The notes below the pieces were generated by a model. That model worked only from the letters and a program-made list of their open reading frames with translations. It had not been told where the DNA came from and made no database searches. Both the position numbers and the translations under genes were made by a program. Of a stretch of DNA of 37,074 nucleotides, positions 11,501-34,795 are shown one piece after another. Every line of letters begins with the position of its first letter. Position 1 is the stretch's first letter. The stretch covers positions 1-37,074 of the forward strand of contig JAPLUU010000001.1 of assembly GCA_026397515.1 (NCBI GenBank). The letters are read 5' to 3'. The stretch is from a candidate division SR1 bacterium. Lineage in GTDB: Bacteria; Patescibacteriota; Gracilibacteria; Absconditabacterales; Absconditicoccaceae.

Positions 11501-11914
11501 AAATGTTCACGTATATATTTTTTTGTCTCATTGTACGGTAGCGGTATATTGGGTTGCTGGTTTCCATTGGGTAGGAGTAAATTCAATCGTCTGCGTAGAT
11601 ATCCATCTACAGGTACCCTGTGCTGCTGGAGCGATGGTGATAGGGCATGCTACTTGTTGATCTAGGTTGGTCAATGCCACCATAGGTTTGGCAAAAGATA
11701 CCAACACGGTTTGATCAAGATTATCTATTGCACCCGATGGGAAAAACAGTGTAACGGCTTTATTGCCGGAAAGCGAGGTATCGAATGTCCCGAGTGAGAC
11801 ATCTGATCCTGGTGATCATAGTAATCATGGGTTGAGGACAAAAAATGCTCAAATACCGAGTCATACAAAAATAACAAGAGAAAATAGCATAATCAGTTTC
11901 TTTTTGTGTCCCAT
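5558..11914 (-). CDS. yfhM: Bacterial alpha-2-macroglobulin (thioester protease trap)
   Basis: A 2118-residue protein, longer than E. coli YfhM (about 1650). An N-terminal hydrophobic segment (about residues 7-28) has no lipobox Cys, so it is probably a membrane anchor rather than a lipoprotein signal. Conserved elements in order are TERPIYKPGDTV (759-770, MG2 domain), KDTAYRNADITTD followed by LPDNLTT (about 1345-1368, before the thioester domain), and CLEQ (Cys1557-Gln1560, thioester bond), then a helical repeat domain with GGFMFRYD. All pieces lie in one frame when the many UGA codons are read as Gly; four occur in the first 35 residues. In Proteobacteria the family traps foreign proteases and is paired with PBP1C, which repairs the wall; that function is inferred here from motifs and the pbpC neighbour. 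Confidence 0.92.
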
Positions 11915-11986
11915 TGCCTGCAGGTAATAGATAAAATATACTCTTCTAGTATCTATTCTTATGGAGGAAAAAAACAATGATATTTG

Positions 11987-12000
11987 TGCACCCGGGTGCA
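11987..12000. repeat. Single GCACCCGGGTGC palindrome, copy 2
   Basis: A perfect 14-base palindrome TGCACCCGGGTGCA lies in the 181-base gap between the divergently transcribed macroglobulin and topA genes. Unlike the other copies it has only one box and lies in a promoter region. It could be an operator or a residual half element. Confidence 0.65.
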
Positions 12001-12095
12001 AACTTTGTTTTTTGGTTGAAATACGGTCTGAATACAGTACATAAGAGTATTGAAAAACCAGTATTTTTTTTGTATTTACTTACTCTTATATATAC

Positions 12096-14510
12096 ATGAA
12101 ACAACTAGTAATTGTAGAGTCTCCAGCCAAATCTGCGACTATCAAGAAATTCCTTGGAGAAGGATTTGAAGTAAAGGCATCATTTGGACATGTAGTAGAT
12201 CTTCCACAAAAAGAACTTGGGGTGGATGTTAAGAATAATTTCGAACCAAAATACCAAATTTCTCCCGACAAGACCAAGGTCGTAAGTGAGCTGAAAGCAT
12301 TAGCTAAAAAGGCTGACAAAGTCTGGATCGCTACCGATGAAGACCGCGAGGGGGAAGCTATTGGACGACATGTAGCGAATGCGCTATGATTGGATATCAA
12401 AAAAACTGCAAGGATCGTATTTCATGAAATCACCAAAGAAGCGATTGATCACGCCGTAAAGAATCCAAGAACGATAGATATGAATTTGGTAGATGCTCAA
12501 CAAGCAAGAAGAGTCCTCGATAGATTGGTAGGATTTGAGTTGTCACCAGTCCTTTGGAAAAAAATAAAAATGGGATTGAGTGCAGGAAGAGTACAATCCG
12601 TCGCCGTAAGGTTGATCGTCGAAAGAGAAAGAGAAATCCAGAAATTTGAATCAGCGAGTTTTTTTAAGGTGATAGGAAATTTTGTCTGAGATGCTAAGAA
12701 AGAATTTAAAGCTGAATTAAATAAAGATCTTATCAATGTCGATGAAGCGAAGAAATTCCTCGAATCATGCAAAGATGCAAAATATACGATAGAAAACGTA
12801 GAAGTAAAACCAGGAAAAAAATCTCCTTCTGCGCCGTTTACGACGTCTACCCTTCAACAAGAAGCGAGTAGAAAATTGTGATTCTCCGTAGCGAGAACGA
12901 TGCAGGTAGCCCAGAAATTATATGAATGAGGATTCATAACCTACATGAGAACTGATTCCGTAAATATGTCCGACTTCGCACTCAAAGCCGCTCAAGATGA
13001 GATCACCAAAAGATATGGAAAAGACTATGCTAACCCGACGAAATATGTTACTAAGTCTAAAGGTTCGCAAGAAGCACATGAATGTATCAGACCAGCACAT
13101 ATGGAAAACAATATGGCCGGAGGTGATGCTAGTGAAAAAAAGTTGTATGAATTGATCTGGAAGAGAACTATCGCTTCCCAGATGGCACCTGCTGAAGTAG
13201 AAAAAACAAAAGCTACTATAAGTATATCTACGAATAACAAGTTCAATTTCATCGCGAGTGGTGAAGTCGTAAAGTTTGATTGATTTTTGAAAGTCTACTT
13301 TGAATCTAAGGATGAAGAAGAAAGCGACGAAGATCAGGAAGGAATGTTGCCGAAGTTAAGCAAAGGAGAAATATTGACGATGCAACAAATATTGGCGGGA
13401 GAAAGATTCAAAAATCACCCACCAAGATACACAGAAGCATCATTGGTTAAGAAGCTTGAAGAGCTTGGAATCGGACGTCCATCAACCTACGCACCGACAA
13501 TTTCTACCGTACAAAAAAGATGATATGTCGTCAAAGAAGATAGAAATGGTAACGAAAGAAGTTATCAAGAAATGGTATTAAGACTAGGAGTAATTACGTC
13601 TGAAATCAAAAAGCAAAATACCGGAGCTGAAAAACAAAAGCTCTTCCCGACAGATATCTGAATGGTCGTAAATGATTTCTTAGTAGCGAATTTCAAAGAT
13701 ATTTTGGATTATAATTTCACAGCAAGCGTAGAAGAAGAGTTTGATGAAGTCGCTGAAGGAAAAATCAAATGGCCAGATATGATGAAGAAATTCTACATAC
13801 CGTTTCATGCAGAAGTCGCTAAGACGATCGAGTTTGCTGAAAAACAGTCATGAGAAAAAGAGCTCGGAATCGATCCTAATACCGGGAAAAAAGTCGTTGC
13901 AAGAATCGGAAGATTCGGTCCTATGGTACAAGTAGGAACTGCTCAAGATACGGATAGTAAACCTAAATTTGCTTCGCTCAGACCAGGACAAAATATTGAA
14001 TCGCTTACCTTGGAAGATGCCTTGGCATTATTCGCATTACCGAGAATCATCGGACACTACGAAGGTGAATGAGTAACGGCTGCCGTAGGAAAATTTGGTC
14101 CCTATCTGAAATATAAAACGTTCTTCGTGTCTATTCCGAAAACACTTGATCCATATACTATTACTATGGAAGATGCGACACCATTGATTGAGAAAAAAAT
14201 CGACACAGAAAAAAATAAATACATCAATACGTTCGATAATAAAGGAGTAAAGATAGAAGTTTTGAATTGATTATATGGTGCATACATCAAGTCTGATGGA
14301 AACAATTACAAGATCCCAAAAGGAGGTAAAGACGCAAGTGATCTTACTATGAAAGATTGTCTAGATATTATGGCAAGCGGTCCAAAGCCTAAATTTGGAG
14401 CTAAAAAAGAAGCGCCAGCTAAGGCGGAAGCTAAAAAACCAGCTAAAAAAGCACCAGCTAAAAAACCAGCTGCAAAAAAAGTAGCTGCAAAAAAGGCAGC
14501 TAAGAAATAG
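12096..14510 (+). CDS. topA: DNA topoisomerase I (type IA)
   Basis: The 804-residue enzyme relaxes negative supercoils by single-strand passage. The Toprim domain starts at [18 protein letters not shown] and holds DEDREGEAI. The catalytic Tyr is Tyr283 in [21 protein letters not shown] and [13 protein letters not shown] are also present. Downstream are GRFGPMVQ and GKFGPYLK, C-terminal repeats of the zinc-finger-free type. The last about 35 residues are Lys/Ala/Pro repeats like histone H1. About ten glycines are UGA, including the Gly of RKLGFS. No Cys4 zinc ribbons are visible. ATG at 12096, TAG at 14508. Confidence 0.96.
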
Positions 14511-14533
14511 TTTTATATGCCTAATCACCATAT

Positions 14534-15154
14534 ATGGAACTTTCTGTCATTACCGGTATTGTAGGTTCAATCGTCTTGCTTATCTGAGCTGCGTGGCCTA
14601 TAGAGAAAATCAAAGAACCAACGAAATCAATCAAAAACTGGTTGTTTGGAATCGGGTCATTTATCATGCTCATCTATGCAATACTCGGGTATTTGGCTGG
14701 AGGACCAGTGTTCTATATCGTATTGGAACTTGTTGTCATGTTGGCAGTAGCGCTTATGTTCTTGGGAACTAAAGATCGTATGAATACCGCACTCATTAGC
14801 GTAGCAGGAATATTATTAATTTTACGATCATGGATAGTGTTTCAAGGTCCTAGTATGATCTTGTTTATTGTAGCATTTGTAGTCTTGTCACTTGGATACG
14901 CATACAAAATGAATACCATCCGCAGATTTCTTTTTCTCGCTATCGGAGGCGCATTAATAGCACTTTCTAGTTACCTCGGAGCAAGTTGGATCTTCTTCCG
15001 ATTGAATGTTTTCTTCTCATTATTTTCACTTATCTACGCTATCAAAATTTCTTTCAATACTAAAAAACTTGCAGCTAAAATTACACAAGTTGCACCAGCA
15101 AAAAAAGTTATCAAGAAAAAACCAGTAGCAACAAAAACTACAAAGAAAAAATAA
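14534..15154 (+). CDS. Multi-pass membrane protein with Lys-rich tail
   Basis: 206 residues with about six predicted membrane segments and a cytoplasmic-looking tail ending KKKPVATKTTKKK. The ATG at 14534 is preferred over later ones because UGA at codon 18 (LLI-G-AAW) joins an N-terminal membrane segment to the rest. It begins 23 bases after topA and shares with it a basic C-terminal tail, so it is probably in the same operon. I recognise no family. Confidence 0.75.
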
Positions 15155-15177
15155 ATTTATCTTTTTAGCTTATTGCT

Positions 15178-15321
15178 ATGCGTGATTATTATGGTGAATC
15201 AGTACCAGAAAGAGAATTGTCTGACCCTGAAACGAGAGAAGATCTGGATTCATTATATGATGAAATTTCCACGACACCACCATTGGAAGACGATGGAACT
15301 ACAGAGAATGAAAATAGTTAA
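15178..15321 (+). CDS. Small acidic protein (47 aa)
   Basis: ATG at 15178 to TAA at 15319-15321. The product is rich in Asp and Glu (EDLDSLYDEI, PLEDDGTTENENS) and lacks hydrophobic segments. It follows the membrane protein by 23 bases, suggesting co-transcription. There is no recognised family, and the short length keeps confidence low. Confidence 0.45.
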   Translation: MRDYYGESVPERELSDPETREDLDSLYDEISTTPPLEDDGTTENENS

Positions 15322-15353
15322 CTAGCAAATCCCCCTCCCCACAATTTAGTAAT

Positions 15354-15444
15354 TTACCCCACCCCAACCCTCCCCATTGCATGGAGAGGGGGCAGTAAAA
15401 AAATCCCTCTCTACGTAGTGGAGAGGGGAAGGGGGGTGAGGTAA
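15354..15444. repeat. Composite palindromic element with two inner hairpins
   Basis: An outer 12-base stem (TTACCCCACCCC with GGGGTGAGGTAA, one mismatch) encloses two hairpins: CCCTCCCCAT-TGC-ATGGAGAGGG (15368-15390) and CCCTCTC-TACGTAGTG-GAGAGGG (15405-15427). It is much more GC-rich than its surroundings and lies between two genes. The fold resembles REP/BIME-type or MITE-like elements. Confidence 0.7.
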
Positions 15445-15472
15445 CTAAATACATATTTTATCTCGTTACTCC

Positions 15473-16516
15473 GTGATTTTGTTGTATATCCGATACGAAC
15501 ATCTCTCTGATTCGCACCCAAGTTTTCGTGTCTATAAGATTCGCCCAAGCGAACAAATTTTGCAATATGTACTCCATGAAAATCTCGTTAAGATAAGTGA
15601 TGAATCCAGAGAATATCCCAAATATACGCATTACTTTATGTTGGATGAAAGCAGATTTTCGTTTTTTAGATTTGATGTATTTCAGAAGTTCGAAAAAAAA
15701 TTCACCTACCAAGATCTCAAAGATATCATAGAAGAAAAGTGCCAAGCGACCAAGAAACATCATGATGTAGATGGAGAAAGGATTATGGTCTACGTCGATA
15801 ATATCCATGCCGATGGTGAAGAAAAAAAACATGTCATCGGGGAAAGCGGCGAAATATTTTTCAGATTATATATTGTATATTTGAATAAGAAAACGATGAA
15901 TATCATGAATTCTACGTATGGAAATATTTTTAGTATAAAAAATATCAACATCCTTCCCCAGTCATTTCACACCCTCCTCTTCTTGAGAAATAATTTGAAA
16001 AAAGATAATTTTGTCCTGCTCTATATCACGGAAAATTCGTGTAAAGCGATCAAGATCCAAAACGGATTTTATCATAGCGTAGAGACATTGAATTTATGAA
16101 TGAGTGCACTGAAACAGATGTACAAAGATAACGGTATCGTTCAATATCGATACAAGACCTATGATTTCATCGAGTCGAATCCCCTAGCGAGAGGTCTAGT
16201 AAAAGAGACTTTGCAATTTTATTCTGAACTCTTTTGTAAACGATTTAAAGAAAAAAATCTTATCTGAACGGACGTCATCGTCATTTCTCCTATCACGAAA
16301 AACGTACACTTCATCGAGACATTCAACGAAGAATATAAAAAAATGACGAACAATTATGTCGTCCCATTCCATCATTCTGAGATGTTGAATACCTTTGGAA
16401 AAATTCGAGAACCGGATGATATGGATGCAATTATCTTGATGAACCGTGATGAAAAAATAAGAAACACTCTCCTGCCTGATAGCGAGAAGAGTGCTTCTAA
16501 TGAAGTAGAGATGTAG
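15473..16516 (+). CDS. Uncharacterised 347-residue protein, possibly actin-fold related
   Basis: The frame is open from just after TAA at 15446. The first usable start is GTG at 15473 (then ILLYIRYEHLSD); no ATG precedes it. UGA encodes Gly in TLNLGMSAL and NLIGTDVIV. There is no signal peptide or membrane segment. The middle stretch FVLLYITENSCKAIKI, then GFYHSVETLNLGMSALKQM, has the layout of the second phosphate-binding region of FtsA/PilM-like actin folds, but the usual acidic residue is absent. That is a tentative reading. It ends at TAG, 17 bases from the convergent kinase gene. Confidence 0.7.
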
Positions 16517-16533
16517 TACTCTGTCATATTAAT

Positions 16534-17055
16534 TTAGTTGCTTTGTTTGAGTATCTCAGCGACTACTTTTTCAAGATTATTATTTGCATCTATGATTATT
16601 GCACCTTTTTTACACATATCATTTTCTCGTTCTTCTTTCCAACTAAACACCCATTTCTGAACTTCGGGAGTACGTCCGAAATCATTTGATGTACGGGTAG
16701 TCAATCTTTCACTAAGTATTTTTTCGTTGGCTTTCAATAGAAACACTTTATCAAACAAAGGAAGTAATTCATCGATATTTGATGCAATTCAACAGTAAAA
16801 CGCAATTTTTTGTGGGTTATCGTCAATAAGTTTCTGTAACTTATTTTTATCACATATCCAACGATGCTGTTTGACCCATTCTTGATTGTCGTTATCAAAA
16901 GTATCAGATATTTTTCATGTTTCTTTGTGAACCATAGCAAATAAACCATATCATTCTTCAATGCCATGTGAACTATATCCAAGTCTTTTGAGTTCATCGC
17001 TTACAGCCGATTTACCAGATCCGGCGACTCATGTTATACATATTGAGGTTTTCAT
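16534..17055 (-). CDS. P-loop nucleotide kinase-like protein
   Basis: 173 residues starting MKTSICITGVAGSGKSAVSD. The Walker A loop GVAGSGKS spans residues 9-16, and its first Gly is a UGA codon. FDKVFLLKA, then ERLTTRTSNDFGRT and GAIIIDA, follow the layout of small-molecule or nucleotide kinases (AAA_18/AAA_33 type), with Arg residues in the lid. The substrate cannot be told from sequence. It is the last gene of a compact minus-strand run, starting 25 bases behind an ABC-2 permease. Confidence 0.8.
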
Positions 17056-17080
17056 ATTTTATTACGATTAGTATATAAAG

Positions 17081-17863
17081 TTATAGATTTATATTCATCA
17101 TATTTCCACTTTCGTATTTACGTAATCATCTGTAAAACACGAACGTTCATAATCATCCGAAGAAGATCGTTGCTCAGAGTAAGAGCAATATTTTTCGTAA
17201 AGTAAACTCAGAGGAAACGATATCATACGGCAAATACGCTACGAAAAATACTGGTATGATCGTCATAAACATGACTTTGAAAATCATGCCTTTGAATATC
17301 CCTGACGGATAGTGACTTGGTCAGAGAATCGCCTCAAAAATTCCTCTACTGAGTTCTCTCGAACTTCCTATCCAAAAAGCTAATGATTCGAAAGCTACCA
17401 TGAATCAGGCGAAAACGATTCCTGCACAGATCGAGACAAATATAACCTTTAGCACAAATATCACGGTCAGATTTTTGATGAGGAATAATAATCATATTCC
17501 ATACAGTAAATCACCTATCGCTGTAATACTCAATCCTCATACCAATATTCTGAGCAAAATATTTTTAGGCAGAAGGAGATGTGCGTCTAACGAACCATTC
17601 ATTACCATCTCTCCGATTTTGCGTGACCCATATAAACAAATATGCATAAAACTAAATCATCAGAGAATGACCACGAGAAGTCTTATATATCATTGGAAAT
17701 CCATACCACCTATGGTCCCGAATTTACTGAAAAAGAAATAGAACAATACCAACATGATAGCATCATTTATGATCATGGATACTACCTGAATCAAAAAAGA
17801 TACTCTATAGGCCAAAGCAGAAAGAATATTGAGTTTTCGGATATGAAATAATAGTTTGAACAT
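17081..17863 (-). CDS. ABC-2 type permease subunit (second)
   Basis: 260 residues with about six membrane segments. The sequence EAILGPSHYPSGIFKG before the last helices is typical of the COG3694/COG4587 permease pairs that work with a COG4586 ATPase. About eleven of its glycines are UGA, including two adjacent ones (VILGGFSF), so the standard code reads it as small fragments. It starts 65 bases after the first permease. The transported substrate is unknown for the family. Confidence 0.85.
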
Positions 17864-17928
17864 AACGCTATGATAGTGATATAAACAATAATAATTTTGA
17901 ATTTTAAAATATTAATTCTGAATTCTAT

Positions 17929-23599: not shown

Positions 23600-25126
23600 T
23601 TATATTAGTGGTTTACCGGTCATCTCTTTGGGTATGCTAATGCCCATAAGTTTCAATACGGTCGGAGCGATATCATACAATCATCATTGAGCTTTGGTAG
23701 GTATAACCTGGCCATTTTTGATATATCGGAAAGGAACGAAATTGAGTGAGTGCGCAGTATTTGGATGTTCTGTCGTTCACATCTCTTCACAGTTTCCGTG
23801 ATCCGCAGTGATGAGTAAATCATACTCGTTCTTCTTACAAAAGTCTATAATACTTTGAACTATAGTTCCGAGTTTTTTCATGGCTTTGATTGTTGCAGGA
23901 ATAATTCCTGTATGTCCAACGATATCACCATTTGCAAAATTGATAACAGAAAAATCAAAATCTTTGGCATTATTTATAAATGCACTATAAATTTCATCTG
24001 CAGACATTTCAGGGTCAAGATCAAAGGTTGCGACTTTGTGTGAAGGAACGAGAATATCTTTTTCTCTATCATAGACGATCTGTTGATCTCCGTTGAAAAA
24101 TTTGGTTACATGTGCATATTTTTCTGTCTCTGCGATATGGAGCTGTCTGAGTTCGTGTTCTGCAAGCACCTCACCTAGTGTATTTTTGATATCCATAGGT
24201 TTGATAAAAAGATGTCCATCGTATTCATTATAATATTTTGTCATCGTAACGAGATAAATATCTGTAAGTTTTTTGGTCATAAAATGTTTGTCTCGCATCG
24301 AATATTGTTCAGCAGTTTTTCTATTCATAGAGACCATGATAGCTTGAGTCAACTCTCTTCCTCTATCTGATCTGAAATTGAGATGAAATATTGCATCTCC
24401 GTTTTCTATCTGATCACCTCGAGTAAAACTCACGGGTTTGATAAATTCGTCGGTGATTCATTGTTCGTATTGTTTTGCAATATATTCGCTTGGTGTATCG
24501 CTCGTCTGCAATTGACCAAACACAATTTCATCATATGATTTCTGGATTCTTTCTCGGTTATTATCTCTATCCATACCGAAATATCTTCACGCTAAGCTTG
24601 AAATCTTCACGTTAGGAAATTTTTTGAGGAAGACGATAAAGTCATTCATCAATACCAATCATGATTGAGGATCCAAGTCTCTTCCATCAGTAAATAAGTG
24701 TAAAGAGACGGTGATATCTTTGGGGATAAGTGGTAATATATTTTTGAGATGCGTATCTATCGCATGTACACCTCCTGGTCCAAAGAGTTGAATGATATGT
24801 AATATAGAATCATTCTTTCTGCAATGCGCTATAGCAGCTTTCAATTCGGGTAATTTTGCAAAACTTCCGTTGGTAAACATAGTATCGATCTCTACAAGAA
24901 ATTGTTGTATAACCCTTCCTGTACCTATCGTCATGTGTCCCACTTCAGAACTTCCTATTTGTCCTGCAGGAAGTCCCACAGATTTTCCTGAGGCATCGAG
25001 TTTGGTTGTCAGTTTTTTGAATAAGGAATCAAAGGTCGGAGATTTTGCCAACGTGATAGCATTTTCTTTTGCGGTTTTCTGATTTATTCAAAATCCGTCG
25101 AGGATAATCAGGGCGAGTTTTTTCAT
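23600..25126 (-). CDS. gpmI: 2,3-bisphosphoglycerate-independent phosphoglycerate mutase
   Basis: The 508-residue Mn-dependent glycolytic enzyme interconverts 3- and 2-phosphoglycerate. It matches the usual length of about 510. MKKLALIILDGFGIN holds the first metal-binding Asp, SSEVGHMTIGTGRV the catalytic Ser60, and DGRDLDPQSG, GRYFGMDRD and NFRSDRGREL the substrate-binding region. INFANGDIVGHTG and ITADHGNCEEM are the second metal-binding motifs. UGA encodes Gly13 of DGFG, and others join three otherwise separate fragments. It is divergent from the gene at 25300. Confidence 0.95.
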
Positions 25127-25244
25127 GGCAAAAAGGAACCAGATAAATAGTCAATAAGAAAGTATAGTCTTTATCTATGTTTTTTCAATATCAAATATTT
25201 TTTATCCCGTCATTATTTTTGTTCTTTTTTTCTTTTAAAAGATA

Positions 25245-25299: not shown

Positions 25300-26097
25300 A
25301 TGAACTTTAAAAAAAATGTAACCGGGCTCCAGATGTTATTTGGGCTTGGCATAGGGAAGGAATACTTACAATCAGGAAAAATTAGCTTTAGTGAAAACAT
25401 AGGGATCCAGGATATCATACAGGAGAACCAACAAATCGGAGGTAATCTTTATGTCCTCATCGCTAGGATTATCGAAAAAGCTATTGCATCCAAAGAAGGT
25501 AAAATGGCTATTGCCATAACCGCAGAAGATCTTTTCACTTTACAATCTTTGGCTAGTGTCCCCCCTGAACGTATGATATCGTTTGATGTTGTTCCTAATG
25601 GAAATATTGTCGCCGACATTGCATTTCGCAATAAAGAAATCACATGCGATATTGCCATTACCTCGAGCAACGAAGAACTATTTCCCAGTATGGATGCCTC
25701 ATTTGGCTTCAAACTTGGAAGTACGAGCTGGATTGATATGATCAAATATCAGATCTACAAACCCAAGCTCAAAAAAATCATCACCAAATACCGTATCAAA
25801 CAGGTGATGGACAAATGGCTTCCTCAGGAAGATCTCTCAAATTTTAATGCACTCCTTCCTACGGAGCAAGATGCTATACGCCAAAGAATCGAAAATGCGT
25901 ATATACTTGCTTACAAAGAAACGGAAGCTAAAATGAACGAACTTGATATCGACGAAGTCGTAAACAAATTCAAGTCAACCCTGGAAGATGTATTGAAATC
26001 TGCAAACACGGAAGAACAGTTTATCATCACCCTTGTTATATCTATTGACAATGGTGTTCTCCAGCTTACTGCTGAGTACAAAAAAATAGAAGAATAA
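25300..26097 (+). CDS. Uncharacterised soluble protein (265 aa)
   Basis: ATG at 25300 to TAA at 26095. There is no signal peptide or membrane segment; the C-terminal third is rich in charged helix-forming residues. Its roughly thirteen glycines use GGG, GGC, GGA and GGT with no UGA, and GGG/GGC are more frequent here than in neighbours such as topA. It is the first gene of the UGA-free block, transcribed away from gpmI, and ends in a strong terminator. No family recognised. Confidence 0.8.
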   Translation: MNFKKNVTGLQMLFGLGIGKEYLQSGKISFSENIGIQDIIQENQQIGGNLYVLIARIIEKAIASKEGKMAIAITAEDLFTLQSLASVPPERMISFDVVPNGNIVADIAFRNKEITCDIAITSSNEELFPSMDASFGFKLGSTSWIDMIKYQIYKPKLKKIITKYRIKQVMDKWLPQEDLSNFNALLPTEQDAIRQRIENAYILAYKETEAKMNELDIDEVVNKFKSTLEDVLKSANTEEQFIITLVISIDNGVLQLTAEYKKIEE

Positions 26098-26120
26098 CGC
26101 ACCACTCTTCTACAATATAA

Positions 26121-26149
26121 TGTTCCTGATATTTCAGGAACATTTTTTT
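26121..26149 (+). terminator. Rho-independent terminator of the gene at 25300
   Basis: A perfect 9-base stem TGTTCCTGA/TCAGGAACA with a TATT loop and seven T directly after it. Confidence 0.9.
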
Positions 26150-26152
26150 ATT

Positions 26153-26177
26153 TAAAAAAAATCCGGGAAATATCCCG
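26153..26177 (-). terminator. Rho-independent terminator of the gene at 26187
   Basis: On the minus strand the stem CGGGA-TATT-TCCCG is followed by an A-T pair and seven T. It starts ten bases after the UGA that ends the upstream gene, the usual position of a terminator after a stop codon. Confidence 0.85.
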
Positions 26178-26186
26178 AATTTCTAT

Positions 26187-27083
26187 TCAATTATTCTTTT
26201 TCTTGTGTAATGATTCTTCCATGATTTTTTGTACATGTTCATGTAAGAATTTTATTCCCAATGGTGTTTTCTTTTCTATCCTGGAAAGCATATCCTTAGG
26301 AGAATAATTTCTCTTGCCAAACATGATTATTTTCTCACCAAAAAGTACTTTATCTTTTTCGTAGAAGCGAGAAATATCTGTCTTAATGTCGTTTAGAAAT
26401 AATTCTATTTCATGCTGACTTTCTAATGACAATGCTCCCAATGATCTTGTTTGACTGATAGGAATATGTTTCCAAGAACGAGATACTGCACAGGTTAAAA
26501 CTGGATTCTTCGTGCGATGCAGTATAAAGTATTTAGGAAACACCTCAGGTGAGTCTACATTCCATCCTAACTTTTTCCAATATTTTTTTCTGTATTGAGT
26601 TGGAGTATGACTCCACATATAGGTCCATACAAAAACAAAAGGAAAAGCAAAGGTAGAAAGTTTTTTGGCAGTAACATATCTCATTATAACCATCCAAACA
26701 GTAATCTTTTTTTCGGATTTTTTTACTCGTATATGCTTCGTTGTATTTGCCAAGACAACGTAATAGAGATATACGATTACTCCTGGAATACTGCAGAAAA
26801 ATAACGAGATAATGTTTTTTTCTAAGCCCAAATCATAATAATGTACGATAAGATATCCTACCACTACCGATAGGGCCAGAAAAATAATAAATGTCAGATG
26901 GAAAATCTTTTTGCCGAAAAATGGTAGAATTAATATGCCTCCAGCAAAGACATTGAATGTGAATATCCATCCAAGAATATATCCAAATTCTTTGGGTTCT
27001 GTAAGAGATACATACTCATAACCTTGCCCAAAAACTGAGAATACACTCATCATTATAGCTATTAACACTAGTGTTTTTTTCAT
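26187..27083 (-). CDS. Multi-pass membrane protein ending at UGA (298 aa)
   Basis: The N-terminus MKKTLVLIAIMMSVFSVFGQ looks like a signal peptide or first helix; about four more membrane segments lie within residues 30-170. The C-terminal about 130 residues are soluble and basic. About seventeen glycines, none UGA. The frame first meets UGA at 26187-26189, ten bases before a terminator. If UGA is read as Gly, the protein gains thirteen residues and ends at TAA 26148-26150, after passing through its own terminator. The UGA therefore looks like an original stop codon. The signal-like end VFGQ is reminiscent of Bacteroidetes exports, but that is only an impression. Function unknown. Confidence 0.8.
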   Translation of the reverse strand: MKKTLVLIAIMMSVFSVFGQGYEYVSLTEPKEFGYILGWIFTFNVFAGGILILPFFGKKIFHLTFIIFLALSVVVGYLIVHYYDLGLEKNIISLFFCSIPGVIVYLYYVVLANTTKHIRVKKSEKKITVWMVIMRYVTAKKLSTFAFPFVFVWTYMWSHTPTQYRKKYWKKLGWNVDSPEVFPKYFILHRTKNPVLTCAVSRSWKHIPISQTRSLGALSLESQHEIELFLNDIKTDISRFYEKDKVLFGEKIIMFGKRNYSPKDMLSRIEKKTPLGIKFLHEHVQKIMEESLHKKKNN

Positions 27084-27119
27084 ATATGTGTGTTTTATTT
27101 TTTATTTTTTTATAAATAA

Positions 27120-27147
27120 TTTATATATATTTTATATATAAAGTCAA
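27120..27147 (-). promoter_or_regulatory. Promoter of the gene at 26187-27083
   Basis: TTGACT, 16 bases, TATAAA on the minus strand, ending 36 bases before the ATG. The same arrangement precedes the NfeD-like gene. Confidence 0.65.
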
Positions 27148-27153
27148 TAGAAA

Positions 27154-27183
27154 TAAAAAAAGCCCTGACACATACGTCAGGGA
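27154..27183 (-). terminator. Rho-independent terminator of the 866-residue protein gene
   Basis: The stem TCCCTGAC/GTCAGGGC with loop GTATGT is followed on the minus strand by seven T. The plus-strand loop ACATAC is the same as in the terminator at 35865-35894. Confidence 0.88.
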
Positions 27184-27207
27184 CTTTACTCATGTATTGA
27201 GAATGAT

Positions 27208-29808
27208 TTAAGCAAGCTGAGCAACAAGGTTTTTCACCTTCTGTTCAAATTCTGCATTGTTACCCATTCTGTCTGAAAATTCATTTTCGATATCGTCGAA
27301 ATCAAACGAACAGTCATCAATTTCTATCAAAGATAATTTGATTTTGATCAACTTTTCATCGGATAAATCTTCTACCGAACCTTCTTTTTCATTATTGGTT
27401 AAATTCTTTACTGAGATGCCTTTGGCCATTTTCTTTATCTTGTCGATAAATTTCTGGTCATCGATCCGGCTATTGAATTCATCCTTGATAGTGTCGTTAC
27501 CATCGTCCAAAAGATACTGGCCGATGATATAGTTGTCCGGCATATCAGTGATGATTGACTCAACATCGTCTCTTTCCAATAATGCAGTCATTTCTTTGCT
27601 TTTTCCTCTTTCCACGATACTTGCTACTTCTGATTCTGTGATATTTTCCCAGCGAGCAATAGCTTCACTCATATCATCGGATTCACACATTTTTGCAAAT
27701 GCTAAGGTCCTCAATGTATCGTTATCACTCATTTCATCTTCAATGAATTTGATCATATCATAATCAGCATCATTGGAAAACGATTCGGAATCGTTAGGAT
27801 TAACTCTGAAACCAAGCAATTCTTTGGCTGACAAATCAGCAATGATTTTTTTGAAAGCATTTTCGTCATCGAACTGATAACTTTCTTTAACCCCATCAGA
27901 GGCATCAGGATAAATCAGTTCTAAACGAATTTTAATAGCTACTTCTTCCGGGAGATTTGTAATAACATCTTCTGAATCTTCTCTTCCCAGCAATGCATTG
28001 ATTTCTGCATCAATTCCTCTGTCCATAATTTTTGCTACCTCTGATTCTGCGACATTTTCCCAGCGAGCGATAGCTTCACTCATGTTATCAGATTGACACA
28101 TCTTTGCGAATGCTAAATCCCTCAATGTATCATTGTCACCCATATCATCTTCGATGAATTTGATCATATCATAATCAGCATCATTGGAAAACGATTCGGA
28201 ATCGTTAGGATTAACTCTGAAACCAAGCAATTCTTTGGCTGACAAATCAGCAATGATTTTTTTGAAAGCATTTTCGTCATCGAACTGATAATTATCTTTT
28301 ACCGTTTCACAGGCATCAGGATAGATCAATTCTAAACGGATCTTGATAGCTACTTCTTCCGGGAGATTTGTAATAATATCTTCCGAATCTTCTCTGCCAA
28401 ATAATGCATTGATTTGTAATTCATCCTTATTGTCCATAATGATTTTCACTTCATCTTCTGAAACATCTTCCCAGCGGGCGATAGCATCACAAAAATGTTT
28501 GGATGTACGCATCTTATCAAATGCTGTCTTACGAAGTGGCTCATCATTTACAGAATGATCTTCAAACAGTTTAATGATATCATGATTACCATCTCCACGG
28601 TCATCGTATCCGAGCAATTCTTCGGCTGATAATTCAGCTATGATCTGCTGGTACGTTGTCACAGGTATGTTTTCAAAATCATAATTTTCATTAACCTGAT
28701 CTTCATAATCACATTCCACAAGCTGCAGAGCAACTTTGACTGCATAAAGAGGAGGGAAAATAGCTACAACATCACTAGCTTCCAATTTTTCGAACAACGC
28801 AGAAATCTCTTCTTTGTAATTACGTTCAAATATCTGTCGAATTTCATCTTCACTAAGATCATCTACACCAGTAATCATACTGATCACGTTGGCGCTGCCA
28901 GCAAGTATTTTGGTAAATGCTTTTTGACGCAGAGCTGTTTCGTTAGGATGATGTTCTTCCAAATAATGTATGATATTGGTATCTGTCGAATCGTAATAGG
29001 AAATCTTCACTTCGTTTTCTGGTGTAGATTTTTTAAAGTCCACGAATGAACTTTCAAAATTTTCTCCTGAGTCGAGTGGTTTCATACGATAACCAAGCAA
29101 TTCATAAGCAGGTACCCGATCAATAGTCGTTGAGACTGTTTCCTTACGGATGTTGCCAAAACCGAAAATCATCAGTGGATTTTTGTTAATCAAGCGCTCA
29201 AGGAGCGAAGATGACATAGTCCATGAGGTGCTATTGGTGTAAGTTTCCATAAAAAATTCCTGTAAACTCTCACTACCATCATCAAGGATTTTGAACATTT
29301 CATTGTCTGCGAGTCTTTGTTCAGTAATCTTTTGATGAAGTTCCCAGACCGTAACAGCAAAGAAAGGTGTTGGAAGTTGTTGTGCGATATATTGCACTTC
29401 AGCACTATCCAAACGAATACTAGCATTTCTCCTGACATCCTCAATACCCCACACTTCGTTTTGTATGATTGTTTTGAGTGTATCAGCTTCTGCATCTAAT
29501 TCTTTTCTTCTTTGTTCTTTTCGTTCTGCGTCACGAGGAGATTCTCTTTTTGGTGGCCCAGCGATATTCTGTTGTACAGACTGTTGTACAGGAGTTGGTG
29601 TGTAAGAAAACTGTTGTTGTTCAGGGACTTGATGCTGATGAGGAACAAAAGATTTGAAGAGCCCCAAAAGAGCTGCTACAATTATTAATATTCCTATCAC
29701 AATCATACCTACCCCCAAATACAACGCAGTAGGTTCGTTACTGAAGAAAAATAGTCCTCCAGCGAGCATGCATAATATCCCAATTAATGAGATTGTACCT
29801 TTTTTCAT
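27208..29808 (-). CDS. Large membrane-anchored repeat protein (866 aa)
   Basis: Two membrane segments (about residues 4-22 and 29-52) are followed by a Gln/Pro-rich linker and a charged helical region. From about residue 230 onward come some five related units of about 110-137 residues; units at 473-609 and 610-746 are nearly identical. Each unit contains IADLSAKELLGFR, then DMIKFIEDDM, AFAKM and EAIARWENV, which suggests helical solenoid repeats. The protein is very acidic outside the linker. About 33 glycines, none UGA. It is downstream of flotillin in the same direction but separated from it by a terminator. I recognise no family; a scaffold or binding role near flotillin domains is an inference. 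Confidence 0.82.
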   Translation of the reverse strand: MKKGTISLIGILCMLAGGLFFFSNEPTALYLGVGMIVIGILIIVAALLGLFKSFVPHQHQVPEQQQFSYTPTPVQQSVQQNIAGPPKRESPRDAERKEQRRKELDAEADTLKTIIQNEVWGIEDVRRNASIRLDSAEVQYIAQQLPTPFFAVTVWELHQKITEQRLADNEMFKILDDGSESLQEFFMETYTNSTSWTMSSSLLERLINKNPLMIFGFGNIRKETVSTTIDRVPAYELLGYRMKPLDSGENFESSFVDFKKSTPENEVKISYYDSTDTNIIHYLEEHHPNETALRQKAFTKILAGSANVISMITGVDDLSEDEIRQIFERNYKEEISALFEKLEASDVVAIFPPLYAVKVALQLVECDYEDQVNENYDFENIPVTTYQQIIAELSAEELLGYDDRGDGNHDIIKLFEDHSVNDEPLRKTAFDKMRTSKHFCDAIARWEDVSEDEVKIIMDNKDELQINALFGREDSEDIITNLPEEVAIKIRLELIYPDACETVKDNYQFDDENAFKKIIADLSAKELLGFRVNPNDSESFSNDADYDMIKFIEDDMGDNDTLRDLAFAKMCQSDNMSEAIARWENVAESEVAKIMDRGIDAEINALLGREDSEDVITNLPEEVAIKIRLELIYPDASDGVKESYQFDDENAFKKIIADLSAKELLGFRVNPNDSESFSNDADYDMIKFIEDEMSDNDTLRTLAFAKMCESDDMSEAIARWENITESEVASIVERGKSKEMTALLERDDVESIITDMPDNYIIGQYLLDDGNDTIKDEFNSRIDDQKFIDKIKKMAKGISVKNLTNNEKEGSVEDLSDEKLIKIKLSLIEIDDCSFDFDDIENEFSDRMGNNAEFEQKVKNLVAQLA
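27571..28392 (-). repeat. Two tandem 411-bp repeats inside the 866-residue protein gene
   Basis: Units 28392-27982 and 27981-27571 are offset by 411 bases (137 codons). Within them long stretches are identical at DNA level, for example around 27745-27870 and 28156-28280, showing a recent duplication or homogenisation. Confidence 0.85.
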
Positions 29809-29843
29809 TTTATTTGTTTTTAATTATTACTATTTTTTGGTGT

Positions 29844-29879
29844 AAAAAAAGGGCCCTCGATCAATATGAAAGAGGGCCC
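29844..29879 (-). terminator. Rho-independent terminator of the flotillin gene
   Basis: A perfect 8-base stem GGGCCCTC/GAGGGCCC with seven T after it on the minus strand. Confidence 0.9.
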
Positions 29880-29921
29880 AAATTGGGATGTTCGATTGAG
29901 TGTTCCTCTTCGAACTACCGA

Positions 29922-31517
29922 TTATTTCTTCTCGGTATCAGAATCACTGGTCATGATTTTTTTCGTGTCAATCCCCAACTTGTTGAAGAGACCGTTTACA
30001 TCAAGACCAGATGCCTGCATGGCAGTGAAGAACTGCATTACCATCTGCGGTGCAGTCTGACCAAACTTGGTCAGCGCAGTACCACCATTGGCTCCACCTC
30101 CACCGAAATCAACGATAGAAATCTTGTCAATGCTTTCAAACGGTTTAGCAGCAGCTTCCATAACACCGGCGAATTTTTCGATAGCAGAAGGAAGAACTCT
30201 TTCAACAACATCCAGGATCTGGAGCAGTTTACCGGCATCATCCAATTGCTTGTAAGCTTCAGCCTTTTTGAGCAAACCTTCGGCTTCGGCAAGGAGGATA
30301 GCTTTTTTACCATTGGCTTCAGCAAGTAATTTTGCTTCCATAACTGCGGCTTCAGCAAGACCTTTGGCCTTGTTACCTTCAGCTTCAGCAAGCAATTTTG
30401 CTTTGTTAGCAGCAGCAGCTCCTTCTCCTTCTTTTGTTACTTTCTGTTTTTCACCCTCGGCGATCATGGTTGCAGCTTTCTGCTTACCTTCAGCATCAAT
30501 AATTGCTGACTGTTGAATTCCTTCAGCATTGATAATTGAAGCTTTCTTTTGGGCTTCGGCCGGTTTGATTTTGGATGAAATCAGTTCTTTTTCTGTTCTC
30601 AACGCGATTGATTCAGCAACTTCTGCTGCTTTATCAGCTTCTACTTTGAGAACTTCCTGTTCAGCAACAACAACTCCTTGACGGGCAGTAGCAGTAGCAA
30701 GTGGACCTGCCTGGTCGGCTGCTGCTTCCTGTTTGGAAACTTCAGCTCTGAAATTAGCCTTTTGAACATCACGATCTTTGTCGGATTGAAAGGTAATTAC
30801 AGAATTTTCATTTGCTTTAACGGCAGCTTCCTGTTGTGCGGTGGTTGTCTGGATTTTACTTTCTTTGTCTGCAGTAGCTTTACCAATTTCGGCATCACGA
30901 ACAACTTCCGCTGTACGTTTTTTACCTAATTGTTCAATATACCCTTTGTCGTCGGATACTTTGGTGATAGTCAGTAAGTCGATACCAAATCCCATTTTTT
31001 TGAGATCGGCTGCTGCTTCAGACAAAATTGACTGATTAAGCTTACTTCTGTCTCCCACTAAATCTTCGACGGTCATGGTACCTGCAATGGCACGTAAGTG
31101 ACCTTCCAAATTCTTGTAAGCCACATCCTGAATAGCACGTTGATCCATACCCAAAAACCTTTCAGCAGCAGCCATAAGCGAGGCTTCATCTGACATGATT
31201 TTTACGTTGGCAACTCCCTGAAGGTTTACCGGAACACCGTCTTTATTAGGCGCCCCCTGAACATCCAGATTGATACTGTACACATTAAGGTCGAGCCAGG
31301 TAATGCTTTCCAAAATTGGAATTTTGAATTTGGCACCGCCGGTTACAACTTTAAAGCCAGTTTCAGAACCATCTGCTTTTTTACTTTTACGGCCGTAGAA
31401 TATGGCCACTTTGTTGGGTGGAACCTTAATGTAGTTCCGTGCAATAAAACTGATTAAACCGATCACTACGATCGCGATCACGAGGACAACGCCCCCAATT
31501 AAAAATACTGAATTCAT
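29922..31517 (-). CDS. floT: Flotillin-like SPFH protein
   Basis: 531 residues from ATG at 31517 (MNSVFLIGGVVLVIAIVV), with one N-terminal membrane hairpin. An SPFH/band 7 domain covers about 30-230. A long Ala/Glu/Lys coiled coil follows (about 230-440, many AEA and AEG repeats). A Gly-rich segment (FGGGGANGG) and a C-terminal oligomerisation region complete the flotillin layout. Flotillins scaffold membrane microdomains and are paired with NfeD/YuaF proteins, as here. About 43 glycines, none UGA; A-rich leader without a clear Shine-Dalgarno. The in-frame upstream extension to 31589 lacks flotillin features and was not used. Confidence 0.93.
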   Translation of the reverse strand: MNSVFLIGGVVLVIAIVVIGLISFIARNYIKVPPNKVAIFYGRKSKKADGSETGFKVVTGGAKFKIPILESITWLDLNVYSINLDVQGAPNKDGVPVNLQGVANVKIMSDEASLMAAAERFLGMDQRAIQDVAYKNLEGHLRAIAGTMTVEDLVGDRSKLNQSILSEAAADLKKMGFGIDLLTITKVSDDKGYIEQLGKKRTAEVVRDAEIGKATADKESKIQTTTAQQEAAVKANENSVITFQSDKDRDVQKANFRAEVSKQEAAADQAGPLATATARQGVVVAEQEVLKVEADKAAEVAESIALRTEKELISSKIKPAEAQKKASIINAEGIQQSAIIDAEGKQKAATMIAEGEKQKVTKEGEGAAAANKAKLLAEAEGNKAKGLAEAAVMEAKLLAEANGKKAILLAEAEGLLKKAEAYKQLDDAGKLLQILDVVERVLPSAIEKFAGVMEAAAKPFESIDKISIVDFGGGGANGGTALTKFGQTAPQMVMQFFTAMQASGLDVNGLFNKLGIDTKKIMTSDSDTEKK

Positions 31518-31608
31518 GTTGTTTTTTTTAAAAATTATTATTACTATTTTGTTTGTAGTGTTGATTCGAATTTTCGGTTCAACAATCAAGACCGAGGTGA
31601 GAGTTGAT

Positions 31609-32148
31609 TTATGGTTTCAGTTCAACAATCAAGACTGATGTTGTTACTTCCTTGACAACGACCTGGGTACCTAATGGCACAGCAGTGTTGTCTACGGTTT
31701 TGGCAGCAAAGTACTTACGTTGTGATTTCACCTCCAGGGATACTTCACCAGGATTACCGCCAGCAGGAATTGCTGTAGTAACCATAGCTGATTTTCCTAT
31801 GAGATCTTCATCGACAATGTGTGAACTTGCCTGCTGTTTGAATGTCTGTTTCATGAGCCACCATGCTAATAATCCAGCAATAAGACCAGCAATGAAGCCG
31901 ATACCACTACTAATAATCATAGATAATTCATAATTCCGACACAACGCACCAATAGCACCGAAGACGGTCATAAATGTCACAAGGACTCTGAAGCTGAAGA
32001 AACTAGGACCATCATCGTGGTCTGAGTCTCCGCCATGATCGGCACCAGCATCATGGTCAAAGTGAAAGTCATGATCACCAAATCCGCCAAAGATGGAGAA
32101 CAACAAGAGTATTACTCCCACCAACATACAGATTAAAAAGAATGTCAT
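31609..32148 (-). CDS. NfeD-like membrane protein (YuaF type)
   Basis: 179 residues. The first membrane segment (1-23) is followed by a His/Asp-rich loop (24-47, DHDFHFDHD), two more membrane segments (about 52-70 and 77-100) and a C-terminal OB-fold domain starting near DLIGKSAMVTTAI and ending VLIVELKP. NfeD proteins are partners of flotillin and stabilise it in membrane microdomains; the flotillin gene starts 91 bases downstream. About 19 glycines, none UGA. The acidic/His loop could bind metal, which is an inference. Confidence 0.88.
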   Translation of the reverse strand: MTFFLICMLVGVILLLFSIFGGFGDHDFHFDHDAGADHGGDSDHDDGPSFFSFRVLVTFMTVFGAIGALCRNYELSMIISSGIGFIAGLIAGLLAWWLMKQTFKQQASSHIVDEDLIGKSAMVTTAIPAGGNPGEVSLEVKSQRKYFAAKTVDNTAVPLGTQVVVKEVTTSVLIVELKP

Positions 32149-32341
32149 GTGCTTGTTTTTTTGGAATTTAACATTTACTCAGATCAGGTTGTCAAGGCTG
32201 AAACGGGAAAAACTTTTCTATTTATTGGTAAGTTTTTCAATCCACCGCATATGAATTTTGTGATGATGCATCAAACATAGTACTTGTTAATTTTGTTAAG
32301 GATCTCTGTTTTTCATAGTTTTTTTTTGTTTATTTTAATGC

Positions 32342-32369
32342 CTTATAATTATTATACATAAAAAGTCAA
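32342..32369 (-). promoter_or_regulatory. Promoter of the NfeD-flotillin genes
   Basis: TTGACT, 16 bases, TATAAG on the minus strand. A second overlapping TTGACT lies five bases upstream. Confidence 0.6.
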
Positions 32370-32428
32370 GTCAATTTCATTACAATATATATAATAGAAT
32401 TTATTATATATTTTAAATATTTTATGTG

Positions 32429-32456
32429 TTGACTTTTTTATTCTATTATATATGTT
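32429..32456 (+). promoter_or_regulatory. Promoter of the 90-residue membrane protein gene
   Basis: TTGACT, 16 bases, TATGTT, ending about 50 bases before the ATG at 32507. Confidence 0.5.
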
Positions 32457-32506
32457 ATTATGTAATAAACAAAATATTTATTACAACAATCAAAAAAAAT
32501 CCGATT

Positions 32507-32779
32507 ATGTTTGAAAAAATTTTTGAAAAGGTTACAGAATTATCCCAGCTTCCTGCATTTTCAGGAGGTAGAACAGAGCATGCACTCTTTGTTATCTTGC
32601 TTGTCGTGATCATACTTGCATGTATGACCATCATCATCTTTGCATTCAAGACCATCCAAAATCTTTGGTCAAGACTATGGAATGTATATGATTCCATACT
32701 CAAAGCAAGAACTGAAAAAGAACAGGAATATACTAAACAACTCCAAGCGAGTGGTAAAACAAGTAAGAGCCAGTTTTAA
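32507..32779 (+). CDS. Small single-pass membrane protein (90 aa)
   Basis: The start at 32507 (MFEKIFEKVTELSQLPAFSGG) is preferred to an open extension to 32426, which overlaps the promoter. One membrane segment (about 27-48, FVILLVVIILACMTIIIF) is followed by a charged tail (KARTEKEQEYTKQLQ). No UGA. It is divergent from the NfeD-like gene and ends in a strong terminator, so it belongs to the UGA-free block. No family recognised. Confidence 0.7.
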   Translation: MFEKIFEKVTELSQLPAFSGGRTEHALFVILLVVIILACMTIIIFAFKTIQNLWSRLWNVYDSILKARTEKEQEYTKQLQASGKTSKSQF

Positions 32780-32804: not shown

Positions 32805-32831
32805 GCACCGTGTATAACGGTGTCTTTTTTT
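32805..32831 (+). terminator. Rho-independent terminator of the 90-residue protein gene
   Basis: The stem CACCG/CGGTG with loop TGTATAA is followed by TC and seven T. It marks the right edge of the UGA-free block. Confidence 0.85.
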
Positions 32832-32972: not shown

Positions 32973-33137
32973 TTATTCTTCTACTACCATCAGATGAGAT
33001 TTGTCACTATGACAGATAGGACATCTTCGATCATCAGGTAAATCTTCCGGTCTAGTGTTTGGTGGAATTCCATGAGCTTGATCTCATTCAGAAAGTTTGT
33101 AGGTGAATTTGTGGCAGACATTGCAGAGATACTTCAT
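32973..33137 (-). CDS. Rubredoxin-like protein (54 aa)
   Basis: A one-iron electron carrier. It has CNVC (Cys5, Cys8) and CPIC (Cys39, Cys42), spaced as in rubredoxin, with the family segments EGDQAHGIPPNTRPEDLPDD between them. Gly18 is UGA. All four iron ligands are present. Possible partners (oxygen or peroxide reductases) are not in the window. It uses the recoded UGA, unlike the genes just to its left. Confidence 0.9.
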
Positions 33138-33250: not shown

Positions 33251-34795
33251 TTACTCACTTTCTACAAACATAGTTTTTGAACGGTACTGCAGCGCTTCAG
33301 CTAAATGGTTGATGGTAACGAAATCTTGTCACTGGATGTCGGCGATAGTTCTGGCTAATTTTATCGTGCGATGTACTACCCTCGTCGATAAGGTTAATTT
33401 CCTCGATGCTTCGGAAAGAAAATTTTTGCACGCATCGTCGAGAGGAATCAATTCGTCGATATGTTTTGATGTGATCTGGGAGTTGGACGTGATAGAAAGT
33501 CAGAGGAATCTTTGTTGTTGAATCTTTCGTGCGTTGATGACTTTGTCCCTGATGGTGAGTGAACTTTCTTCGCCGATGTTGTTGAGAATCTTGTCGATGT
33601 CCTCGCGCGGAATTTCCAAAATCATATCTATACGGTCCAAGAGTGGTCACGATATTTTGCTCTGGTAACGCTTGATATCCATGAGCGAACATGAACAGGA
33701 TTTTTCTGAGTCTTTGTAATATCCACATTTACACGGATTCATCGCCCCGACAAACATAAAATTTGCTGGGTACTGGATAGTGCCTGCGACGCGCGAAATC
33801 ACGACATATCTATCTTCGAGTGGCTGACGCAAAACCTCTAACACTTCGCGCGGAAACTCGGTGACTTCATCGAAAAACAAAATTCATTTGTGGGCTAATG
33901 AAACTTCGCCGGGCGTCAATTGTGATCACCCGCCGACAATAGAAATCTTAGAAGCGGTATGGTGAACCTGGCGAAACGGGCGTTTGGTGACGAGTGGAAT
34001 ATCTTTGGATAGTTTACCGACGAGCGAATAGACTTGTGAGACTTCGAGAATTTCTTCGAATCCTAGTGGTGGTAAAATGCTTTGCATCGCTTTGCTGAGC
34101 AATGTTTTTCCGCTCCCGGGTGCTCACACCATCAGCACATTATGCAGTCCTGCAGCCGCGATTGCGAGTGCTCTCTTCGCGATGAGCTGTCCTTTGATAT
34201 GGGCAAAATCTACATCGAAAATTTCGCTCTGTTGATATAATGTTTCAATATTTTTGGGTTGATCGATACAGAAAAACTCTTTTCCTTCCAAAAAATATTC
34301 TATCATCTGATCAAATTTTCCGATCGGATACATCACTATCCCCGGCACATATTCCAATTCATAGACATTCTCCTCCGGCACAAAAAAATGTTTGTAGCCA
34401 TGATGCATAGCACTGATTACTGATGGCAGTAGTCCGTTTACACGTTTTACATTTCCATCTAATCACAGCTCACCGAAGTAGAGAAATTCCTGCTGTGGTA
34501 ATTTTATTTTGTCTTCAAAAATCAGAAACAATATCGCTACTGCCATCGGCAGATCGAAACTCGTCCCGACTTTTTTGATATCTGATGGCGATAAATTCAA
34601 GACTATTTTTCTGTTGGGGAGCTGGATCCCGGCGTTGCGGAAGGTACCTCTCAAGCGCTCTTTCGACTCTTTGATTGCGGCATCCGGTAGTCCTACAATT
34701 TCTATCGTCGGCAATGATTTACTCGAATCCGCTTCGATAATAATCTCGTGTCACTCGAGTCAGACATTAGCGTAAGTTTTTACTTTTTGGATCAT
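33251..34795 (-). CDS. comM: ComM/YifB family Mg-chelatase-like AAA+ ATPase
   Basis: 514 residues. The N-terminal ChlI-like domain includes PTIEIVGLPDAAIKESKERL, NLSPSDIKKVGTSFDLP and YFGELGLDGNVK. Walker A is GAPGSGKTLLSKAM (224-231, with Gly224 encoded by UGA). GILFFDEVTEFPREVLEVLR is Walker B, NPCKCGYY the Cys motif, and ISGPLLDRIDM the sensor region. ComM is a hexameric helicase for branch migration during natural transformation; function here is assigned by family. The gene overlaps nothing and ends just before the palindromic repeat. Confidence 0.93.

What the first reader, a model, noticed from the sequence alone, without database searches (positions are those of the whole stretch)
25300..32779. 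A 7.5-kb block with no UGA glycine inside a recoded genome
Six consecutive genes carry roughly 125-130 glycine codons (hand count) and none is UGA, whereas flanking genes use UGA for perhaps 20-45 percent of glycines. The block also differs in GGG/GGC use, in strong terminators behind most genes and in its promoter style. It looks like recently acquired DNA from a standard-code donor that the host can still translate. Genes of this size passing between codes would be an informative case of transfer across a code barrier.
Basis: partly seen in the sequence, partly recalled or inferred. Interest (0 to 1): 0.85.

Follow-up and report, generated by a model that had tools for sequence, protein, structure and literature searches.

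The report
Standard-code DNA imported into a recoded bacterium
A bacterium that reads the stop codon UGA as glycine carries a block of membrane-protein genes in which UGA never means glycine and in one gene still marks the end, which shows that it recently took in DNA written in the ordinary genetic code, at a spot where some of its relatives carry similar inserts.

Summary
Six genes (25300-32779) hold 126 glycine codons and no UGA; in 694 genes from 761 kb of the same genome plus the window flanks, UGA is 31.3% of 14,614 glycines. These are not native genes that merely avoid UGA. (1) Gene 26187-27083 ends at UGA, five bases before an intrinsic terminator. (2) Terminators follow 21 of 33 block or other UGA-free genes but 25 of 403 UGA-using genes. 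(3) Three congeners lack any such cassette between phosphoglycerate mutase and ChlI; two others carry different UGA-free SPFH cassettes there. (4) Block proteins are absent from the lineage or only 24-28% like its proteins; the flotillin groups with standard-code bacteria. The host shows no RF2 and has a 74-nt tRNA(UCA), tmRNA and SmpB. Best reading: recent, repeated uptake of standard-code flotillin/SPFH cassettes at a hot spot. Viral contigs carry the SPFH protein of two congeners at 75%, as alike as those two are to each other, so a phage vehicle is plausible but unproven. The genome holds more such inserts, and five genes still end in UGA plus a terminator. Such transfer is a known kind; the UGA-stop evidence and the hot spot are new.

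The parts
23600..25126 (-). Native left flank: phosphoglycerate mutase (iPGM), 7 UGA glycines
   Evidence: Pfam match; orthologues next to ChlI in congeners
25157..25199 (.). End of alignable native left flank; left junction at about 25200
   Evidence: 41 bp at 97.6% identity to G492, diverging after it; other congeners align to about here
25300..26097 (+). g1, 265 aa, no known family; terminator at 26119-26144
   Evidence: 0 UGA of 13 Gly; no Pfam match above cut-off; terminator
26187..27083 (-). g2, 298 aa, signal-peptide-like start; ends at TGA 26189-26187, hairpin 26181-26160 plus T run; table-25 stop TAA at 26150-26148 lies beyond the T run
27208..29808 (-). g3, 866 aa, two N-terminal hydrophobic helices then helical repeats; terminator 27182-27163
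   Evidence: 0 UGA of 33 Gly; homologue only in G492; model pLDDT 69.5; terminator
29922..31517 (-). g4, flotillin, 531 aa; strong terminator-like hairpin at about 29852-29880
   Evidence: Band_7 and Flot domains; 0 UGA of 43 Gly; hairpin read directly from the sequence, just outside the arms and loop limits of the scans
31609..32148 (-). g5, NfeD-like partner, 179 aa
   Evidence: weak NfeD match E 0.0017; 37-40% homologues beside the flotillin in Harrisonbacteria and Bipolaricaulota loci
32149..32345 (-). Leader of the NfeD-flotillin operon, homologous to the leaders of the SPFH genes of G492 and G112
32507..32779 (+). g6, 90-aa membrane protein; terminator 32805-32823
   Evidence: 38% homologue at the same end of the G492 insert; terminator
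32973..33137 (-). Native right flank: rubredoxin-like gene with one UGA glycine
   Evidence: frame read from the sequence; matching DNA in G490 between iPGM and ChlI
33251..34795 (-). Native right flank: ChlI (Mg chelatase family), 9 UGA glycines

Best explanation
The block is standard-code bacterial or phage DNA that entered this UGA=glycine Patescibacterium recently and landed between the phosphoglycerate mutase gene and the rubredoxin/ChlI genes, a site where congeners received other SPFH cassettes on their own. Shown: no UGA glycine, one UGA stop with its own terminator, foreign-style terminators, empty and differently filled sites, foreign closest relatives. Inferred: frames without UGA read the same in both codes, so flotillin, NfeD-like, g1, g3 and g6 proteins can be made at once; g2 cannot stop at its UGA because no RF2 was found and a tRNA(UCA) is present, so ribosomes should read on as glycine to the end of a terminated mRNA and need tmRNA rescue. 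After arrival, GGA-to-UGA mutations should slowly fill the genes, so UGA content is a clock since entry. The flotillin and its NfeD-like partner probably scaffold a membrane microdomain (established for the families, not tested here).
For: 0 of 126 against 31.3% UGA. UGA stop plus terminator in g2 and in four further genes of the genome, against 0 of 1,273 control positions (Fisher p = 0.0003). Terminators behind 21 of 33 block or UGA-free genes against 25 of 403 (p = 4e-15). Codon usage outside glycine is closer to the other UGA-free genes (r 0.954) than to native genes (r 0.891), and tetranucleotides are more deviant than 97% of 223 windows. No cassette in G490, G058, G493; other UGA-free SPFH inserts in G492 and G112. 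Closest flotillins are standard-code bacteria. RF1 only, tRNA(UCA), tmRNA, SmpB.
Against: Donor not identified; no integrase or target-site duplication found. The SPFH copies of G492 and G112 differ about as much as ChlI does (75% and 80% identity; same codon at identical residues 0.49 and 0.46), which by itself would also fit vertical descent. Draft genome, no reads.
Confidence: 0.86

Rival explanations
1. The genes are long-resident natives in which UGA is kept out by selection, for example because they are strongly expressed and the tRNA(UCA) is slow.
For: UGA fraction falls as GGT use rises (r = -0.34); flotillin and SPFH genes are GGT-rich; SPFH of G492 and G112 are as diverged as vertical genes.
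Against: DnaK, RpoC and RecA keep 9-18% UGA; g2 and g3 are not GGT-biased in the same way; the UGA stop of g2 and the terminators are unexplained; third-position GC of the SPFH genes runs against that of their hosts; g3 and g6 are 38-39% alike where ChlI is 91% alike.
Confidence: 0.07
2. The DNA belongs to mobile elements, such as large phages, that have been selected to read alike in both codes, so the lack of UGA is an adaptation and not a sign of recency.
For: SPFH relatives at 75-82% on viral contigs and flotillin relatives on two more, all without internal UGA; code-11-compatible phages of Gracilibacteria are reported (PMC10746230).
Against: A code-neutral element should also avoid UGA stops, yet g2 and the G497 SPFH gene end in UGA. 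g1, g2 and g3 have no viral relative found.
Confidence: 0.05
3. The contig is a chimera that joins foreign DNA to the recoded genome.
For: Draft genome with 4% estimated contamination; no reads available.
Against: The block lies between two native genes that are neighbours in congeners, so two misjoins at one locus would be needed; like inserts sit at the same place in two other assemblies, with a shared left flank and homologous leader.
Confidence: 0.02

Closest known systems
Horizontal gene acquisition in Absconditabacteria (126 genes in Vampirococcus lugosii, PMC8080830)
   Same: Recoded (UGA=Gly) Patescibacteria gain genes from other organisms.
   Different: There inferred from gene trees; here the donor's code is still visible as UGA-free frames, UGA stops and terminators, at one hot spot.
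Code-11-compatible phages of Gracilibacteria and Absconditabacteria (PMC10746230)
   Same: Standard-code-compatible DNA meets a UGA=Gly host.
   Different: That is phage genomes; here it is chromosomal DNA, for which a phage origin is possible but unproven.
Lateral transfer of SPFH-NfeD gene pairs (PMC2636767)
   Same: An SPFH gene and its NfeD-like partner move together.
   Different: Here across a genetic-code difference, with g3 and g6 and a shared leader.
Recoded E. coli with unassigned UAG (PMC6207430)
   Same: Incoming genes end in a codon that the host cannot use as a stop; rescue by tmRNA is the expected fate.
   Different: There UAG is unassigned and engineered; here UGA is an efficient glycine codon in nature, and rescue is inferred.

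Membership tests
Recent transfer from a standard-code source into a UGA=Gly host | Host reads UGA as glycine | tested here: met
   UGA opposite glycine in orthologues (310 of 315 in ChlI), RF1 only, tRNA(UCA)
Recent transfer from a standard-code source into a UGA=Gly host | No UGA glycine in the block | tested here: met
   0 of 126
Recent transfer from a standard-code source into a UGA=Gly host | UGA used as a stop in the block | tested here: met
   g2, TGA 26189-26187 with terminator
Recent transfer from a standard-code source into a UGA=Gly host | Site empty in close relatives | tested here: met
   G490, G058, G493
Recent transfer from a standard-code source into a UGA=Gly host | Named donor with near-identical DNA | tested here: not met
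   best protein match 60%, partial; metagenome scan not available
Flotillin (FloT/YuaG-type SPFH protein) | Band_7 and Flot domains in one protein | tested here: met
   E 1.4e-28 and 1.6e-10
Flotillin (FloT/YuaG-type SPFH protein) | NCBIfam FloT equivalog cut-off | tested here: not met
   250.9 bits against 700; a flotillin-family protein, not FloT itself
NfeD family | NfeD C-terminal domain above Pfam cut-off | tested here: inconclusive
   19 bits against 29.1, but beside a flotillin as in relatives
Prophage or phage-derived element | Phage structural or integration genes in the block | tested here: not met
   no PHROG match of note to the six proteins
Known anti-phage defence system | Match to PADLOC models | tested here: not met
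   only a marginal ZorA hit for g6, E 0.014

The most novel reading that the evidence does not exclude
A preferred landing site in this recoded genus repeatedly receives SPFH or flotillin cassettes that circulate on large standard-code phages; the cassettes share a leader RNA, and imported genes that still end in UGA become non-stop messages in the new host, so the recoding acts as a leaky, measurable filter on incoming DNA and UGA content dates each arrival.
Probability: 0.35. Interest if true: 0.82.

Novelty: new variant of a known kind. Interest (0 to 1): 0.64.

Why it matters
Whether a changed genetic code isolates a lineage from gene transfer has been argued both ways for these bacteria. 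Here the donor's code is still visible in the acquired DNA, with a built-in clock (UGA gain) and an internal test of the barrier (UGA stops followed by terminators), in a genome whose own genes mostly lack intrinsic terminators. That makes the barrier measurable: how much DNA enters, how old it is, and what happens to genes that end in the reassigned codon.

Tried and rejected
Promoter style as a donor mark: not significant. Rfam for the leader and block: nothing convincing. Leader model elsewhere in 909 kb of held sequence and in the viral loci: no convincing further copy. Structure of g1: too poor to use. Structure of g3: helical repeats, no PDB match at E below 1e-3. g3 in plasmids, phages and viral contigs: none; g1 and g2 in viral contigs: none. 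Viral relative of another UGA-free gene, the vWA gene on C14: none by this scan. Strong expression as the cause: rejected on DnaK, RpoC, RecA and on terminators. A UGA clock from ChlI and mutase columns: about 6-10 UGA expected in 126 glycines since the split from near congeners, but from only 1-2 observed gains, so indicative only.

Full report
What was checked. The window is one whole contig (C22) of a 1.21-Mb draft genome in 23 contigs. Read with UGA as glycine, long genes with several UGA each flank 25.3-32.8 kb; inside it six genes are open in the standard code. They hold 126 glycines and no UGA. I sampled 761 kb of the same genome as background: 694 predicted genes (window flanks included), 14,614 glycines, 31.3% UGA, and no other run of neighbouring genes with more than 46 UGA-free glycines. 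The finding is real and far beyond chance. Gene prediction was a simple longest-frame method, so single percentages carry some error.

Host code. The only release factor found with the RF2 model is an RF1-type protein (PAT motif, 241 bits against a cut-off of 370) that itself contains 7 UGA codons. A 74-nt tRNA with anticodon UCA is on C5; ARAGORN labels it selenocysteine, but its length and the codon use fit a glycine tRNA (inference). tmRNA and SmpB are present. In ChlI, residues opposite UGA codons in congeners are GGN or UGA glycines in 310 of 315 comparisons. UGA is glycine here.

Is it just avoidance of UGA? DnaK, RpoC and RecA use 16, 18 and 9% UGA, so expression may lower UGA but does not remove it. 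Two features unrelated to glycine separate the block from native genes. First, gene 26187-27083 ends at UGA, and an intrinsic terminator starts five bases later; the next stop usable in this host (TAA 26150-26148) lies beyond the T run. Second, intrinsic terminators: 4 of 6 block genes and 17 of 27 other UGA-free genes have one, against 25 of 403 UGA-using genes (p = 4e-15). Five genes in the sampled genome and window end in UGA followed by a terminator, against 0 of 1,273 control positions inside native genes (p = 0.0003). In relative G497 the SPFH gene ends UGA-UGA, and a hairpin with a T run follows before the next TAA.

The site in relatives. In congeners G490, G058 and G493 the phosphoglycerate mutase and ChlI genes are 96-783 bp apart, with at most a rubredoxin-like and a four-helix-type gene between them; none has such a cassette. 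G492 has a 5.6-kb insert there: a 777-aa SPFH protein, a 39% homologue of g3 and a 38% homologue of g6, all without UGA glycine. G112 has a 774-aa SPFH gene, also without UGA, beside a native-looking gene with five UGA. ChlI of G492 is 91% identical to the window's, so g3 and g6 cannot be ordinary vertical orthologues unless they evolve extremely fast. The two SPFH proteins are about 75% identical to each other, but their third-position GC runs against their hosts (G112: 0.25 against 0.58 and 0.48; G492: 0.43 against 0.37 and 0.27), and a viral-contig SPFH is 75% identical to both. Separate arrivals fit best. A promoter and leader of about 190 nt is homologous in all three cassettes although the genes behind it differ; three sequences give modest covariation support for a structured RNA.

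Where it came from. In 145 genomes of the class, flotillin relatives of the lineage are only 24-28% alike in its own family. The best relatives are a standard-code Harrisonbacteria contig (60%, partial) and Bipolaricaulota (about 54%); a tree puts the block's flotillin with the former (94/91) inside a clade with Bipolaricaulota and some Acidobacteriota (100/99), with a long-branch warning. The NfeD-like neighbour is shared with these loci. g3 was found only in G000 and G492. The SPFH protein of G492 and G112 has 75% relatives on three IMG/VR contigs of 40-178 kb, whose SPFH sequences are identical, and an 82% piece on a fourth; flotillin relatives occur on two viral contigs, one of 195 kb (39% and 44%). 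A phage vehicle is therefore plausible, but no phage hallmark gene lies in the block, some viral contigs may be misassigned, and g1, g2 and g3 have no viral relative found.

How it works, step by step. Shown: the DNA is standard-code DNA at a site that is variable in the genus. Inferred from families: flotillin and NfeD build membrane scaffolds; g3 (two N-terminal hydrophobic helices plus a helical repeat body in a medium-confidence model) and g6 may be membrane-anchored partners. Inferred from the host's machinery: UGA-free genes are translated unchanged, while g2 is read through its stop into the terminator and should need tmRNA rescue, as shown for UAG-ended genes in recoded E. coli (PMC6207430).

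Comparison with the literature. Gene gain by transfer in this group is reported (PMC8080830), code-11-compatible phages are reported (PMC10746230), and lateral transfer of SPFH-NfeD pairs is reported (PMC2636767). In the searches made I found no report that uses UGA-free frames, UGA stops and terminators together to read such transfers from the DNA, nor of this hot spot; the library holds open-access papers only.

Limits. Draft genome without reads; no donor identified; stretches of the genome, not all of it, were examined; the flotillin relatives come from a pattern-based scan that keeps 80 loci; the UGA clock rests on few sites.

Noticed in passing
L172 (G000:C14:20001-40000) 10521-17888: A second stretch of UGA-free genes (radical SAM, PP2C-like, kinase-like, vWA, nicotinamidase-like by eye); the PP2C-like gene ends at TGA overlapping the next start.
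   Followed up: partly
L127 13818-14972, L138 18114-18521, L168 17999-18571, L170 13935-14537: Four further genes of the same genome end in UGA followed within 70 nt by an intrinsic terminator.
   Followed up: partly
L136 7204-8193, L140 747-1796, L125 14280-18323, L126 85-2322: Single or paired UGA-free genes, some with lipoprotein or signal-peptide starts of the kind common in Bacteroidota.
   Followed up: partly
window 32149-32345; L118 1390-1592; L117 3190-3357: Shared leader with a short upstream frame ending in Pro-stop (MKNRDP, MKNRRMMNNGP, MDP by eye) and a covarying fold; no Rfam family.
   Followed up: partly
L149 (G497:C38:1-12000): In this relative native genes use UGA for 80-100% of glycines in several genes while interspersed genes use none, and its SPFH gene ends UGA-UGA.
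   Followed up: partly
L177-L179: Viral contigs with the SPFH gene also carry an RNA-binding (phrog_850) protein, a phrog_2971 protein and an adenylosuccinate-synthetase-like gene.
   Followed up: no
window 27603-28313: Two 300-bp copies, 90% identical, within g3: a recent internal duplication of the helical repeats.
   Followed up: no
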